Source: an uncultured Bacteroidota bacterium
GTDB taxonomy: Bacteria > Bacteroidota > Bacteroidia > Bacteroidales > P3
NCBI GenBank assembly: GCA_902791695.1
Contig: CADAWR010000002.1
Span: 62,001-126,000, forward strand
Length of the DNA stretch: 64,000 bases
Reading direction: 5' to 3'
Shown piece after piece: positions 5,592 to 58,820 of this stretch. Numbering within the stretch: position 1 is the first letter of the stretch; every line of letters starts with the position of its first letter. Under the pieces are notes generated by a model. It had not been told where the DNA came from. It saw nothing but the letters and a program-made list of their open reading frames with translations, and did no database searches. The translations under genes were made by a program, and so were the position numbers.

Positions 5592-5689
5592 GTACCCGCT
5601 CCGTCTGTTCTACGGTTGTTTACCGGTTGTTCGACGGTTTAAACCGTTAAACAGTCGTAGAACAACCGTAGAACAGACGGAGCGGGTAC
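5592..5689. repeat. Modular 98-bp palindromic repeat, copy 1 (divergent nrdD/pruA gap)
   Basis: Two 49-base arms meet at a central TTTAAA. The outer 29 bases (GTACCCGCTCCGTCTG... inward) pair perfectly. Inside, the arms consist of 11-bp modules of the type TGTTCTACGGT, TGTTTACCGGT and TGTTCGACGGT on the left. The right arm, read on the other strand, has TGTTCTACGGT, TGTTCTACGAC and TGTTTAACGGT. A purine-rich GGAGAGGG tract follows on the right. The rest of the gap (5440-5780) shows no gene. Confidence 0.9.
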
Positions 5690-5779
5690 GGAGAGGGTAG
5701 GGAGTGGGAGCGGGGAGGGGGTACGGAAAAGATGGCGTGAAAAAAAGTAAAATAATTTGCAATTATAATGAATAATTAC

Positions 5780-5788
5780 TATATTTGC
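5780..5788 (+). promoter_or_regulatory. -7 promoter box for pruA
   Basis: TATATTTGC about 60 bases upstream of the pruA start codon. Confidence 0.7.
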
Positions 5789-5847
5789 ACATTGTTATTT
5801 TAACGACGATTAACGGAAAACAACAATCAATCAATAAAATAAACACT

Positions 5848-7482
5848 ATGAACAACAGTATTTTCATGTTTCCCAAGCCCGAGAACGAACCCGTTAAAGG
5901 TTATGCTCCCGGCAGTCCTGAAAGAGCAGAAATCCGCAAAGCCCTCGACGAGCTTTACAAGAAGGTGACCGAGATTCCCGCCATCATCGGTGGCAAGGAG
6001 GTGAAGACCAAGAATATGGGCGAGATTGTGATGCCCACGGAGAACCACCACGTGCTGGCCCGCTACCACAAGGTGGGCGAGAAGGAGGTGCAGGCCGCCA
6101 TCGACGCTGCCATGAAAGCCCGTCAGGAATGGGCCGAGACGCCCTGGATGGACCGTGCGAGCGTGATGCTGAAGATTGCGACGCTGATCAGCGGCAAGTA
6201 CCGCTACCTTATCAACGCCGCCACTATGCTTGGCCAGGGCAAGACCACCATGCAGGCCGAGATTGACAGTGCCTGCGAGCTCTGCGACTTCCTGCGCTAC
6301 AATGTGCACTATGCCAGCCAGATATACAACGACCAGCCTTGCAGCGACAAGGGCACGCTGAACTATGTGACCTACCGCGCCATGGAGGGCTTTGTGTTCG
6401 CCATCACGCCGTTCAACTTCACCAGCATCGCCAGCAACCTGTGCATGAGCCCTGTGCTGATGGGCAATGTGTGCATATGGAAGCCCAGCACCACCGCAAT
6501 GCTGAGCAACTACCTGCTTATGAAGATATACAAGGAAGCCGGTCTGCCCGACGGCGTGGTGAACTTCCTGCCCGGCAGCGGCGCCCTGATTGGCAAGGTG
6601 GCCTTCGCCAACGAGAACCTGGCGGGTGTGCACTTCACCGGAAGCACAGGCACCTTCAAGGGCTTCTGGAAGGCTATCGGCCAGAACATCGACATCTACA
6701 AGACCTACCCGAAGATTGTCGGCGAGACCGGCGGCAAGGACTTCATCATGGTGCACAAGAGCGCCGACGCCGACCAGGTGGCCACGGCCATTGTGCGCGG
6801 CGCCTTCGAGTTCCAGGGCCAGAAGTGCTCGGCAGCCAGCCGCGCCTATGTGCCCAAGAGCATGTGGCCGAAGGTTGAGAAGATTGTGGGCAAGATGCTG
6901 AAGGAGATAAAGATGGGCGACGTGCGCGACTTCAGCGCCTTCGTCAATGCCGTCATCGACGAGGCTTCGTTCGACAACTGCAAGCGCTACATCGACCATG
7001 CCAAGAAGAGCAAGGACGCCGAGATAGTGTTCGGCGGCAAGTGCGACAAGAAGAAGGGCTGGTTTGTGGAGCCAACGGTCATCCGCGCCCTCAAGCCCGA
7101 CTACAAGAGCATGTGCGAGGAGATCTTCGGACCTATCATTACTATATATGTATACGACGACAAGGACTATGAGAAGACCTGCCAGCTGTGCGACCGCACG
7201 TCGCCCTATGCGCTGACGGGAGCCATCTTTGCCAGCGACCGCAAGGCTTTGCGTACGGGCTACGACCTGCTGAAGAATGCCGCCGGCAACATCTACTTCA
7301 ACGACAAGCCCACGGGAGCCGTGGTGGGTCAGCAGCCCTTCGGCGGTGCCCGCGCCAGCGGTACCAACGACAAGGCAGGCAGCTACCTGAACCTGCTGCG
7401 CTGGGTGAGTCCGCAGGCCATCAAGGAGACCTTCGACCCCGCGAGCGACTACAAGTATCCGTTCATCAGCAGCGCCAAGTAA
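5848..7482 (+). CDS. pruA: L-glutamate gamma-semialdehyde (1-pyrroline-5-carboxylate) dehydrogenase
   Basis: 544 residues, the normal length for stand-alone P5C dehydrogenase of the aldehyde dehydrogenase superfamily. The NAD-binding region includes FTGSTGTFKGFW, the general base lies in GETGGKDF (E293) and the catalytic cysteine in GQKCSAASR (C327). The enzyme oxidises glutamate semialdehyde to glutamate with NAD, the last step of proline and ornithine/arginine breakdown. No proline dehydrogenase is next to it here. I used the ATG at 5848 because the longer open frame to 5785 begins within the promoter box. The gene is followed after 20 bases by a lipoprotein gene. Confidence 0.93.
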   Translation: MNNSIFMFPKPENEPVKGYAPGSPERAEIRKALDELYKKVTEIPAIIGGKEVKTKNMGEIVMPTENHHVLARYHKVGEKEVQAAIDAAMKARQEWAETPWMDRASVMLKIATLISGKYRYLINAATMLGQGKTTMQAEIDSACELCDFLRYNVHYASQIYNDQPCSDKGTLNYVTYRAMEGFVFAITPFNFTSIASNLCMSPVLMGNVCIWKPSTTAMLSNYLLMKIYKEAGLPDGVVNFLPGSGALIGKVAFANENLAGVHFTGSTGTFKGFWKAIGQNIDIYKTYPKIVGETGGKDFIMVHKSADADQVATAIVRGAFEFQGQKCSAASRAYVPKSMWPKVEKIVGKMLKEIKMGDVRDFSAFVNAVIDEASFDNCKRYIDHAKKSKDAEIVFGGKCDKKKGWFVEPTVIRALKPDYKSMCEEIFGPIITIYVYDDKDYEKTCQLCDRTSPYALTGAIFASDRKALRTGYDLLKNAAGNIYFNDKPTGAVVGQQPFGGARASGTNDKAGSYLNLLRWVSPQAIKETFDPASDYKYPFISSAK

Positions 7483-57114: not shown

Positions 57115-57869
57115 ATTTCAACTGTTAGTCTGTCATAAGCCAGCTCCACCCCCTCCGGCAACTCCGCCGACACCTCGGCATGCAGCCCCATCTCATGGCT
57201 CATGTGTGTCAGGTAGGCTCGCTCCGGCCCCACCCTCTCTATCACTTCCAACGCTTCGGGGAGGCAATAGTGCGAAAAGTGCTTTGCTTTGCGCAATGCG
57301 TTTATCACCAGCACTTTCACCCCCTGCAGTTTTTCAATCTCCTCCGGCGCAATATGGTTGGCGTCGGTTATGTATGCCACATCGCCAATCCTGTAGCCCA
57401 GCACCGGCAGGTCTTTGTGCATTGCTTTTATCGGTGTCACCTCAAGCCCTGCCGCCATAAACTGTCCCGTAACGGTGTGCAGCTCTGCCTCGGGCAGCCC
57501 GGGGTACTCGTGCGGCTCGAAGATGTAGTGGTAGTCACGCTCTATCGCTACCCGTGCCTCGGCGTTTAGGAATACATCCATCTTCCTATGCTGCACATAG
57601 TTAAAGGACCTTATATCATCTAATCCTGCAACATGGTCGCGATGGGCGTGCGTTATCAGTATGGCGTCTATGTGGTCTACCTGTTCGCGCAGCATCTGCT
57701 GGCGGAAATCCGGCCCGATATCGAAGAGGATGTTTTTGTCGCCTACCGACAGCAGGGCCGATGTACGAAGACGCGTGTCCCGCTCGTCGGACGAGCGGCA
57801 CACGCTGCAGCGGCATGCAATAACCGGCACCCCCTGCGAAGTTCCCGTACCCAAAAAAGTCAATCTCAT
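57111..57869 (-). CDS. MBL-fold metallohydrolase (PhnP-like)
   Basis: 252 residues. The metal motif HAHRDH is in LITHAHRDHVAGLDDIR, with later metal ligands in ITDANH and LTHMSHEMG. The CRCSVCRS cysteine cluster near residue 20 is typical of the PhnP/cyclic-phosphodiesterase subgroup. No phosphonate genes are near, so phosphodiesterase activity on an unknown substrate is the safest reading. Its start overlaps the regulator stop by four bases. Confidence 0.9.
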   Translation of the reverse strand: MRLTFLGTGTSQGVPVIACRCSVCRSSDERDTRLRTSALLSVGDKNILFDIGPDFRQQMLREQVDHIDAILITHAHRDHVAGLDDIRSFNYVQHRKMDVFLNAEARVAIERDYHYIFEPHEYPGLPEAELHTVTGQFMAAGLEVTPIKAMHKDLPVLGYRIGDVAYITDANHIAPEEIEKLQGVKVLVINALRKAKHFSHYCLPEALEVIERVGPERAYLTHMSHEMGLHAEVSAELPEGVELAYDRLTVEI

Positions 57870-58558
57870 TCCTTACGCGTCAGCTTGAAGCCCACGCCGT
57901 GGACATTGACAATCTCCACACTCGGGTCTGCCTTGAGGTATTTACGCAACTTGGTGATATACACATCCATGGAACGCGCGGCGAAGTAGCTGTCGTCCTT
58001 CCAAATCTTCTGCAGACAGGTGTTACGGTCCACCAGCTGTCCGAAGTTGATGGCAAACATGCGCAGCAGGTCACATTCCTTGGCGGTCAGGCGCTGAATG
58101 TCGTCGCCGAGCACCAGTGTCTGGTGAGCATAGTCGAAGGTGAAGTCGCCGATTTTGAACACGTTCTTGTCGGGGCGGTCCTCGTTGAACGAGCGGCGCA
58201 TGGTGGCGTTAAGGCGAGCCAGAAGCTCCTCCATGCTGAAAGGTTTGGTGATATAATCGTCGGCGCCGATTTCGAAGCCTTTGAGCTTATCAGCCTCCAG
58301 ATTCTTGGCAGTAAGGAAGATAAGCGGTACTTTCTTGTCCACCTTGCGTATTTCCTTGGCGACGGTGAAACCGTCTTTGACAGGCATCATCACGTCGAGG
58401 ATGCAGGCGTCCACGTCCTCCTCCTCAAACATATTCGTGGCTTCTTCGCCGTCCTTGGCCCACACCACAGTGTAGCCTTTCTGCGTCAGATAAGCTTTCA
58501 GGATTGTGCCCAGGTTGGGGTCGTCCTCTGCTACCAGAAGTTTAATTCCGAGGTTCAT
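57866..58558 (-). CDS. OmpR-family response regulator (RprY-like)
   Basis: 230 residues. The receiver domain (about 1-120) has the acidic pocket in VAEDDPNLG, the phospho-acceptor aspartate in ACILDVMMP and the conserved lysine in ITKPFS. A winged-helix DNA-binding domain follows, with ARSMDVYITKLRKYLK. No histidine kinase gene is adjacent, so the partner lies elsewhere. I use the ATG at 58558; an in-frame ATG at 58627 would add 23 residues with no homology. First gene of the operon down to the S9 peptidase. Confidence 0.88.
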   Translation of the reverse strand: MNLGIKLLVAEDDPNLGTILKAYLTQKGYTVVWAKDGEEATNMFEEEDVDACILDVMMPVKDGFTVAKEIRKVDKKVPLIFLTAKNLEADKLKGFEIGADDYITKPFSMEELLARLNATMRRSFNEDRPDKNVFKIGDFTFDYAHQTLVLGDDIQRLTAKECDLLRMFAINFGQLVDRNTCLQKIWKDDSYFAARSMDVYITKLRKYLKADPSVEIVNVHGVGFKLTRKE

Positions 58559-58724
58559 AGTATTAGATGTTTGATACTTTGATACTTCCGTCAAATCGAC
58601 ACAAGGTCTCATTGACTCTTTTTTCATCTATTTTGTACAACAATAACAGCGGATATTGCATTTTATTGTGCGAAATGTTAAATTTTTTTTGTTAATACGC
58701 CCCCTGTCTCCCCACTGCACCTCC

Positions 58725-58820
58725 TCCGTACCCGCTCCGTACCCGCTCCGACTGTTCACCGGTTGTTTAACGGTTTTTTGTCGGAGGAAAGTCGGAGGGG
58801 GGACGGAGCGGGGACGGAGC
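58725..58820. repeat. Modular palindromic repeat, short subtype, copy 6 (divergent regulator/DHH gap)
   Basis: Two direct units TCCGTACCCGC lead to a hairpin with stem CTCCGAC/GTCGGAG around TGTTCACCGGT and TGTTTAACGGT modules. GTCGGAGG, GGACGGAGCG and GGGACGGAGC complete an imperfect right arm. The rest of the gap (58559-58920) holds only a promoter box and no gene. Confidence 0.82.

What the first reader, a model, noticed from the sequence alone, without database searches (positions are those of the whole stretch)
5592..58820. Six palindromic repeats assembled from interchangeable 11-bp modules, all at gene-orientation switches
Copies at 5592-5689, 12114-12211, 23530-23625, 29274-29378, 52318-52415 and 58725-58820 share an outer arm (CCGCTCCGTCTG or CCGCTCCGACTG). 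Inside are 11-bp modules such as TGTTCTACGGT, TGTTTAACGGT, TGTTCACCGGT and TGTTCTACGAC, whose order differs from copy to copy while the total arm length stays at 49 bases in the complete 98-bp copies. Right arms consistently carry TGTTCTACGAC next to the centre, so the palindrome has a direction. All six lie where gene direction switches (four divergent, two convergent). The window has eleven such switches and no copy between co-directional genes; long co-directional gaps are few, so this bias is suggestive only. Candidates: a transposase-dependent REP/MITE-like element, a nucleoid or attenuation signal, or a recombination substrate whose modules shuffle. I know of no described family with this architecture.
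Basis: seen in the sequence. Interest (0 to 1): 0.78.

Follow-up and report, generated by a model that had tools for sequence, protein, structure and literature searches.

The report
Evenly spaced 11-bp-step DNA sites
A rumen bacterium carries more than a hundred short DNA sites, built from 11-letter steps, in the untranscribed gaps between genes and kept at least about 5,700 letters apart; related species keep similar sites in many of the same gaps but spell them differently, which hints at a chromosome-organising system that fits no known family.

Summary
Four of the six are palindromes (type A); two are one-sided (type B). Type A carries twelve CG steps at 11-bp intervals, 10 across the centre. 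The genome holds at least 119 elements. They are not confined to orientation switches (16 of 54 lie between co-directional genes) but sit between transcription units, mostly beside promoters. Two results were not foreseen. (1) Spacing: 0 of 93 are under 5.5 kb (null mean 27), 0 of 82 in a second species, and a third species with other array sequences also avoids close pairs (P=0.004). (2) Between close species positions are kept (18 of 19) while spelling, centre and unit number change; more distant congeners hold different 11-bp arrays in 5 of 8 orthologous gaps. No RAYT transposase was found and no dominant gyrase-like GC wave. Best reading: protein-assembly sites that organise the chromosome at ~10 kb scale. 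No binding protein is known. Two-way Rho terminators and immune mobile elements remain rivals.

The parts
5579..5703 (.). type A palindromic array, divergent gap between 3139-5229(-) and 5848-7482(+); lies between the cobalamin-riboswitch side and the promoter-like box of the right gene
12101..12225 (.). type A palindromic array, convergent gap; a terminator-like hairpin (read by eye) lies between it and the left gene's stop codon
23516..23639 (.). type A palindromic array, divergent gap between 20994-23459(-) and 23764-24699(+)
29279..29366 (+). type B one-sided array, divergent gap; the same gap carries a B element in RUG649; 5.7 kb from the element before it, the smallest spacing found
52304..52428 (.). 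type A palindromic array, convergent gap; its two neighbouring genes lie apart in RUG12227 and RUG649
58724..58817 (+). type B one-sided array, divergent gap; the orthologous gap in RUG649 holds a type A
46899..46900 (.). empty site: RUG12227 has a type B element here (139 bp extra) and RUG649 an element (about 140 bp extra); 5.4 kb from the element at 52304
1372..1536 (.). array of another 11-bp sequence (ATATGTTTTGT-like units), same pitch, outside the main family; 4.2 kb from the element at 5579
   Evidence: (family D2)

Best explanation
The elements are DNA-level assembly sites for a sequence-specific protein that binds one 11-bp unit (core GTTnnnCGG in this species) per helical turn. It would build a nucleoprotein array outward from a defined centre, in DNA that RNA polymerase does not normally cross. 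About 120-130 such sites, none found nearer than 5.7 kb and most often 8-12 kb apart, would act as regularly spaced chromosome-organising points (domain boundary or anchor). Two sites of the family inside one loop-sized stretch are not tolerated and one is lost. Shown: anatomy, location between transcription units, the spacing rule in this family (two species) and in one other array family, shared positions, skeleton conservation with changing triplets, and 11-bp arrays of other sequence in congeners. Inferred: that a protein binds, that it assembles on one face, that the role is chromosome organisation, and why close pairs are excluded.
For: CG steps at -61,-50,-39,-28,-17,-6,+4,+15,+26,+37,+48,+59, each in 74-94% of 35 type A copies. 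In 13 orthologous A-A pairs identity is GTT 220/231, CGG 210/231, triplet 146/231, flank 1843/2217. Spacing: 0 of 93 <5.5 kb against null mean 27, minimum 15 in 5000 trials; with eligible gaps and classes fixed, 0 of 20000 permutations are free of spacings <5.5 kb; 49 spacings of profile-found elements have minimum 5,747; RUG12227 0 of 82, from the first 100 of 114 hits; other array family in G049 minimum 4,940, P=0.0038. Gaps >=200 bp within 5.8 kb of another element: 2 of 47 occupied; beyond: 51 of 96, divergent 30 of 36. Positions shared in 18 of 19 comparisons at 17 G000 sites. Species-wide geometry: even centre in 34 of 36 G000 copies, odd in 18 of 27 RUG12227 and 18 of 22 RUG649 copies, lengths stepping by 11. 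Lag-11 arrays far exceed other lags in G000, G059, G049 and G023. A promoter-like box lies between element and start codon at 64 of 82 flanks, and in none of 56 elements. One site is missing where two would lie 5.4 kb apart.
Against: No binding protein was identified, and none was searched for. No expression, binding or contact data. No shared bending signal was shown: GC waves are not dominant. Sameness of 119 dispersed copies could come from copying rather than selection. The exclusion does not clearly hold between families: of 8 other lag-11 arrays in held G000 gaps two lie 205 bp and 4.4 kb from an element, and the window array at 1372-1536 lies 4.2 kb away. The divergent-gap preference also fits a promoter-side insulator. 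G001, G002 and G048 show few lag-11 gaps (2 of 37, 3 of 36, 3 of 44) and G014 6 of 96, so the system is weak or absent in some congeners. Spacing as CV is not significant in G049 (P=0.31) or G023 (0.067).
Confidence: 0.42

Rival explanations
1. Two-way Rho-dependent terminators (rut sites). RNA entering from either side is C-rich and G-poor with cytosines every 11 nt, a spacing that suits Rho's primary sites, so the element stops read-through and antisense transcription between units.
For: Inbound 60-nt C/G >1 in 68 of 70 arms, median 1.55, against 80 of 180 control half-gaps. C>G-left/G>C-right polarity in 60 of 61 arrays in G000 and 27 of 38 in other species. RhoTermPredict seeks a 78-nt stretch with C>G and cytosines every 11-13 nt (PMC6407284, passages). 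Type B points with transcription at 8 of 9 co-directional sites in G000 and 11 of 15 in relatives; the TAA half is upstream at 5 of 5 classifiable type A co-directional sites in G000, but 5 of 11 in relatives.
Against: Occupancy is highest in divergent gaps (32/44), where no sense transcript enters, and lower in convergent gaps (5/18). It predicts no minimum spacing. The unit of the G048 family (TTTAGTTTGCA) has no YC step (read).
Confidence: 0.2
2. A cargo-less mobile element (two transposon ends or one) whose transposition is barred near existing copies by target immunity, which sets the minimum spacing; insertions inside genes are purged.
For: The edge near 5.7 kb resembles Mu cis-immunity, where insertions rise sharply about 5 kb out and reach bulk at about 7 kb (PMC7350765, passages). 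The asymmetric core TAA/CGA could be two unlike ends. Other-family arrays are not excluded as strictly, as family-specific immunity would predict. Intergenic location.
Against: Positions shared in 18 of 19 comparisons. No sharp ends: 11-bp units fade outward. The filled/empty pair differs by 139 bp, wider than the array, without target duplication. No Y1_Tnp; no Mu-type C-terminal domain in 6 genomes, though that control rang nowhere, so absence is not shown. Random filling to jamming predicts about 75 elements against 53 seen. No heavily decayed copies among 30 elements in the first 464 kb; the weakest has 39.7 bits in its best profile.
Confidence: 0.15
3. Strong gyrase sites: symmetric ~130-bp wraps placed where transcription concentrates supercoiling.
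For: The E. coli gyrase motif is 130 bp, symmetric, with two 47-bp flanks of 10.75-bp periodicity, and the Mu strong gyrase site helps set a topological domain (PMC6379681, passages). Type A spans 120 bp or more, is symmetric with 11-bp pitch and sits mostly in divergent gaps.
Against: The periodic signal in E. coli is GC content. Here the mean GC profile has more power at 5.5 bp (4.4, 4.2) than at 11 bp (1.7, 2.0), although some 11-12 bp power exists, and 18 crude array clusters show no first-harmonic excess (0.206 against 0.199, P=0.42). Sequence-specific skeleton conservation is not expected from shape readout alone.
Confidence: 0.1
4. Neutral 11-bp minisatellites with palindrome correction, no function.
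For: Unit number changes in steps of 11 and triplets turn over; the outer triplet co-varies between arms (0.80 and 0.86 against 0.53 and 0.54, none of 2000 shuffles reaching it), as template switching would give.
Against: Spacing, skeleton more conserved than flank, positions shared, and lag 11 clearly in excess of other lags in four of eight species.
Confidence: 0.05

Closest known systems
REP / BIME intergenic palindromes and RAYT transposases (PMC2817692, search listing with start of abstract only)
   Same: short dispersed palindromic repeats in intergenic DNA, >100 per genome, directional units
   Different: no Y1_Tnp found in this genome, 11-bp arrays over ~120 bp, minimum spacing, positions shared across species with changed sequence
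Gyrase motif / strong gyrase sites (PMC6379681, passages)
   Same: ~130-bp symmetric, helically phased, linked to topological domains
   Different: the phased feature here is a CG step and GTT/CGG skeleton; the GC wave is not dominant
Rho utilisation (rut) sites (PMC6407284, passages)
   Same: C>G RNA on inbound strands and 11-nt spacing
   Different: palindromic, mostly between divergent promoters, minimum spacing
ParR/parC plasmid centromeres with 11-bp iterons (architecture recalled; only a search listing seen)
   Same: arrays of 11-bp direct repeats in two clusters about a centre
   Different: about 120 chromosomal copies; no ParR or ParM was sought
Mu / Tn7 target immunity (PMC7350765, passages)
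   Same: exclusion distance of about 5-7 kb
   Different: no transposase found, positions shared between species, no target duplication at the one pair seen

Membership tests
REP/BIME | RAYT (Y1_Tnp) transposase in genome | tested here: not met
   PF01797: 0 matches in G000 (95% complete); control rings in 5 of 14 genomes
REP/BIME | copies mainly downstream of genes rather than in divergent gaps (recalled feature) | tested here: not met
   divergent gaps most occupied, 32/44 against 16/81 co-directional and 5/18 convergent
MITE / mobile element | target-site duplication and sharp ends at a filled/empty pair | tested here: inconclusive
   one pair: 139-bp difference, no duplication, wider than the array; most likely a loss in G000, so not a test of insertion
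MITE / mobile element | presence/absence differences between close species | tested here: not met
   18 of 19 comparisons share the site; most relative loci were fetched because they hold an element, so this runs mainly from relative to G000
Element with target immunity (Mu/Tn7 type) | minimum spacing between copies of the family | tested here: met
   0 of 93 and 0 of 82 spacings <5.5 kb
Element with target immunity (Mu/Tn7 type) | Mu/Tn7-type transposase | tested here: inconclusive
   PF09299 in 0 of 6 genomes, but no control genome rang
Gyrase motif | 10.75-bp GC-content wave in both flanks | tested here: not met
   5.5-bp power exceeds 11-bp power in the mean profile; no first-harmonic excess in 18 crude clusters
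Gyrase motif | symmetric extent of about 130 bp | tested here: met
   CG steps from -61 to +59 in type A; type B is not symmetric
Rho rut site | C>G transcript with cytosines every 11-13 nt | tested here: met
   68 of 70 inbound type A arms C/G>1; the 11-nt cytosine spacing follows from the repeated unit and was not scored separately
Rho rut site | placed downstream of transcribed genes | tested here: not met
   80 start-codon flanks against 28 stop-codon flanks
Rho rut site | Rho-dependent RNA 3' ends | not testable with these tools
   no RNA data
Rfam RNA families | match to a described RNA at gathering score | tested here: not met
   only SRP RNA and a cobalamin riboswitch in the window
ParR/parC centromere | cognate ParR protein | not tested
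   no search made
Xer dif site | 11 + 6 + 11 core bound by XerC/XerD (layout recalled) | tested here: inconclusive
   even centre in 34 of 36 G000 copies but odd in 18 of 27 and 18 of 22 copies of two relatives; no recombinase test

The most novel reading that the evidence does not exclude
A genus-level, self-spacing chromosome system: a fast-evolving DNA-binding protein and its 11-bp-pitch arrays co-evolve, centromere-like, so that positions and geometry (11-bp step, centre spacing, no two sites of the family within ~5-6 kb) are inherited while the letters are rewritten species by species. Each array would mark or anchor a ~10 kb chromosomal domain, the bacterial counterpart of a regularly spaced insulator.
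Probability: 0.35. Interest if true: 0.93.

Novelty: categorically new. Interest (0 to 1): 0.82.

Why it matters
Bacterial chromosomes are thought to be divided into topological domains of about 10 kb whose boundaries are mostly described as unplaced or set by transcription (recalled). Here is a genome in which about 120 defined sites stand at that scale, with a minimum spacing, outside transcribed DNA, at positions shared with its close relatives. If they mark domains, the sequence basis of domain boundaries becomes directly testable. Replacement of the letters while place and pitch are kept would be an unusual, centromere-like evolutionary pattern in a bacterial chromosome.

Tried and rejected
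RAYT-driven REP: no Y1_Tnp found. Known RNA: none at the elements. Plasmid or phage origin: no match to one type A element in plasmids or phages, and no half-site match in viral contigs. GC/AT phased bending shared by all families: negative, and not dominant in the main family's mean GC profile. Strict restriction to orientation switches: false. Full jamming by random filling: predicts 75 against 53 seen. Cruciform or RNA hairpin as the common basis: innermost triplets of the two arms are mismatched in nearly all G000 type A copies and type B is not a palindrome. Xer/dif: the centre length is not kept between species. A first clustering put all 107 arrays in one group and was redone with a stricter rule giving 18 clusters, of which one still holds 82 arrays from 8 species, so the cluster count is crude. 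Regularity as CV is not significant in G049 (P=0.31), G023 (0.067) or G014 (0.058); the minimum-distance test is significant in G049 (0.0038), weakly in G023 (0.031), borderline in G014 (0.051), and these tests did not hold orientation class fixed. In one search, five contigs shorter than 5 kb were skipped, which left 8 of the 9 other genera. Literature: four searches for Bacteroidetes/Bacteroidales intergenic palindromes, 11-bp direct repeats and evenly or regularly spaced repeats listed nothing that describes this; the library is open-licence PMC only and I opened none of those listings. Locus L106 (Clostridia MAG) matched the half-site pattern but not the profile and was not counted as an element. 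Corrected on re-check: the smallest spacing is 5,747 bp, because one window element is missed by the half-site pattern, whose own minimum is 5,973.
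Full report
WHAT IS THERE. The window is bases 62001-126000 of contig 2 of a 2.17 Mb, 37-contig genome, Bacteroidales by its SRP RNA. Named relatives with many copies are rumen metagenome bins RUG649 (= G019, told to be the same genus) and RUG12227 (= G059, kinship not told). 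The genus is not named by any tool. The six copies are real. Four are quasi-palindromes of ~125 bp (type A): units TTGTTnnnCGG run inward from both sides to a 6-bp centre, often TTTAAA. Two are one-sided (type B): CTCCGTACCCG units, CTCCGACTGTT, CACCGGTTGTT, TAACGGTTTTTT, then GGAG-type units; they are not palindromes (28 of 105 and 28 of 96 self-complementary positions). In both types units of the same 11-bp step fade outward into the flanks. Across 35 type A copies a CG step stands every 11 bp from -61 to +59 (10 bp across the centre), each place filled in 74-94% of copies.

GENOME-WIDE COUNT AND PLACE. A 22-base half-site pattern gives 154 hits and none for its reversed control; these merge to 119 elements. 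In the first 464 kb, profile searches found 30 elements, of which the pattern finds 27 (counted by hand from the two lists), so the total is nearer 130. In 858 kb of stretches there are 56 elements, 36 A and 20 B. With a simple home-made gene caller, 54 fall in gaps: 32 divergent, 16 co-directional, 6 convergent; two were not placed. Of gaps >=200 bp, 32/44 divergent, 5/18 convergent and 16/81 co-directional are occupied. Elements lie a median 122 bp from start codons (80 flanks) and 37 bp from stop codons (28 flanks). A promoter-like box TAnnTTTG (a Bacteroidetes motif I recall) lies between element and start codon at 64 of 82 flanks, its letters reversed at 9, and within none of the 56 elements. 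At convergent sites read by eye, terminator-like hairpins lie between element and gene end. The elements therefore lie mostly between transcription units.

SPACING. By the pattern, 93 within-contig spacings have minimum 5,973 bp; none is below 5.5 kb, where uniform placement gives 27 on average and never under 15 in 5000 trials; 38 of 93 lie between 8 and 12 kb. Profile-found elements in the held stretches give 49 spacings with minimum 5,747. Holding the eligible gaps and their orientation classes fixed (29 occupied of 93), none of 20000 permutations is free of spacings under 5.5 kb (null mean 6.9), and the CV of 0.47 against 0.89 has P=0.0002. In RUG12227 82 spacings have minimum 5,845, none below 5.5 kb, null mean 22, never under 10; these come from the first 100 of 114 hits. 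These two species share positions, so they are not independent. G049 has arrays of other sequence: 11 arrays among 33 gaps, minimum 4,940 (P=0.0038), though its CV is not unusual (P=0.31). G023 is weaker (minimum 4,185, P=0.031). In G000, gaps within 5.8 kb of another element are occupied in 2 of 47 cases, gaps farther away in 51 of 96, divergent ones in 30 of 36. The rule is close to 'a roomy divergent gap has one unless another is within ~5.8 kb'. Random filling with that exclusion gives ~75 elements against 53 seen. Against a general rule: of 8 other lag-11 arrays in held G000 gaps, two lie 205 bp and 4.4 kb from an element, and the window's array at 1372-1536 lies 4.2 kb away. Within G000 the exclusion is thus shown only inside the family.

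SAME PLACES, NEW LETTERS. Against RUG12227 and RUG649 (median protein identity 90%), 19 comparisons of conserved gene pairs with an element in either species (17 distinct G000 sites) show it in both in 18. Most relative loci were fetched because they contain the pattern, so this mainly runs from relative to G000. In 13 orthologous A-A pairs identity is GTT 220/231, CGG 210/231, triplets 146/231 and flanks 1843/2217: the skeleton is held above flank level and the triplets change faster than the flanks. Each species has its own geometry. G000: even centre in 34 of 36, arm-to-arm length 70 in 18 of 26 measured. RUG12227: odd centre in 18 of 27, mostly 71, 82 or 93. RUG649: odd centre in 18 of 22, mostly 82 or 93. 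Of the 14 odd RUG649 centres printed, 10 have TAA on both arms, and their spacer letters differ from site to site while the length is held, which argues for geometric constraint over simple copying. Two gaps hold A in one species and B in the other.

WIDER GENUS. Counting gaps >=110 bp with a strong lag-p self-match, lag 11 gives 35 of 111 in G000, 25 of 83 in G059, 11 of 33 in G049 and 12 of 52 in G023; other lags reach at most 2 there, except lag 22 in G000 (5), its double. It gives 6 of 96 in G014 (next best lag 3), 3 of 44 in G048, 3 of 36 in G002 and 2 of 37 in G001, where lag 7 does as well or better in the last two (4 and 3). So the class is strong in some congeners and marginal in others. 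Many arrays have unrelated letters and several are palindromic. Stretches from 8 of the family's other genera gave no such lag-11 gap in about 67 gaps, while congener G132 gave 2 of 5; samples were small and gene calls poor, and two weaker arrays (0.56 and 0.62 in a shorter window) were printed for G126 and G124. Where an orthologous gap could be compared in G049, G002, G014 or G023, 5 of 8 gaps with a G000 element hold an 11-bp array, against 3 of 23 without one (Fisher P=0.013; array cut-offs 0.58 and 0.56). The five are one G049, one G014 and three G023 arrays, all unlike the G000 family in letters. Two of the three negatives are at weak G000 elements. The numbers are small and a shared preference for divergent gaps contributes.

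A NATURAL EXPERIMENT. At window 46899/46900 G000 is empty; RUG12227 has a type B element (139 bp extra) and RUG649 an element (about 140 bp extra). G000 has another element 5.4 kb away at 52304. In both relatives the genes left and right of 52304 lie on different contigs, with the element next to the right gene and no match to it beside the left gene. The simplest story is that a rearrangement in G000 brought two sites to 5.4 kb and one was lost by a deletion that took some flank and left no duplication. It is one case, and RUG649 is a fragmented assembly.

ANATOMY AND POLARITY. The centre of type A in G000 is directional: the innermost triplets differ between arms (identity 0.06-0.09 against 0.4-0.5 expected), TAA facing CGA in 15, CTA in 10 of 34 read; the outermost triplet co-varies between arms (0.80 and 0.86 against 0.53-0.54) and the middle one hardly. 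In co-directional gaps of G000 type B points with transcription in 8 of 9 and the TAA half of type A is upstream in 5 of 5 classifiable (2 not). In the relatives B is with transcription in 11 of 15, and A is split 5 upstream to 6 downstream (4 not classified), where my centre pattern misreads odd centres. The strand entering from either side is C-rich: 68 of 70 arms, 60 of 61 arrays in G000 and 27 of 38 elsewhere.

MECHANISM. Skeleton conservation, one unit per helical turn and a species-wide centre geometry point to a protein on DNA. The spacing and the location between transcription units point to a chromosome-scale role. A scale of 5-7 kb also appears as the range of Mu cis-immunity, in a passage that speaks of ~7 kb loops (PMC7350765, passages). 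I infer that two arrays within loop reach bridge harmfully. The strongest rival is two-way Rho termination, because the inbound RNA fits the rut description (PMC6407284, passages); it fails on divergent preference and spacing. Immune mobile elements explain spacing but not shared positions. Gyrase sites fit size and symmetry (PMC6379681, passages) but the defining GC wave is not dominant. No binder is known, so confidence in the mechanism is moderate.

Noticed in passing
window 5246-5431 (-): Cobalamin riboswitch (Rfam RF00174, 102 bits) in the leader of the left gene of the first divergent gap; the element lies upstream of it.
   Followed up: partly
window 1372-1536: A run of tandem 11-bp units of a different sequence (ATATGTTTTGT-like), 4.2 kb from the element at 5579: same pitch, other family.
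   Followed up: partly
window 12351-12424 and 52089-52162: A 74-bp repeat in inverted orientation, 89% complementary, beside the two convergent-site elements, with terminator-like hairpins by eye; part of it also matches elsewhere in G059. Perhaps a second dispersed family tied to gene ends.
   Followed up: no
window 13145-13278: Three similar 45-bp tandem units inside a called gene.
   Followed up: no
G000 contig 2 near 145,380 (held block starting at 62,001, offset 83,380): A palindromic array of another family (TTCTTCAGTAG units) in the same genome, resembling one in G023 at a gap orthologous to a different G000 type A site.
   Followed up: partly
G000 contig 3, 96831 onward: Seven near-perfect 11-bp units GTCGGGGGTAG about 200 bp from a type A element in the same gap.
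   Followed up: no
G000 contig 3, 29316-45014 and 119440-138510; contig 1, 124406-136312: Very long called genes (15.7, 19.1 and 11.9 kb), each with an element in a neighbouring gap.
   Followed up: no
L106 (Clostridia MAG): A single half-site pattern match in a bin labelled Clostridia, without a profile match; perhaps chance or a misbinned contig.
   Followed up: partly
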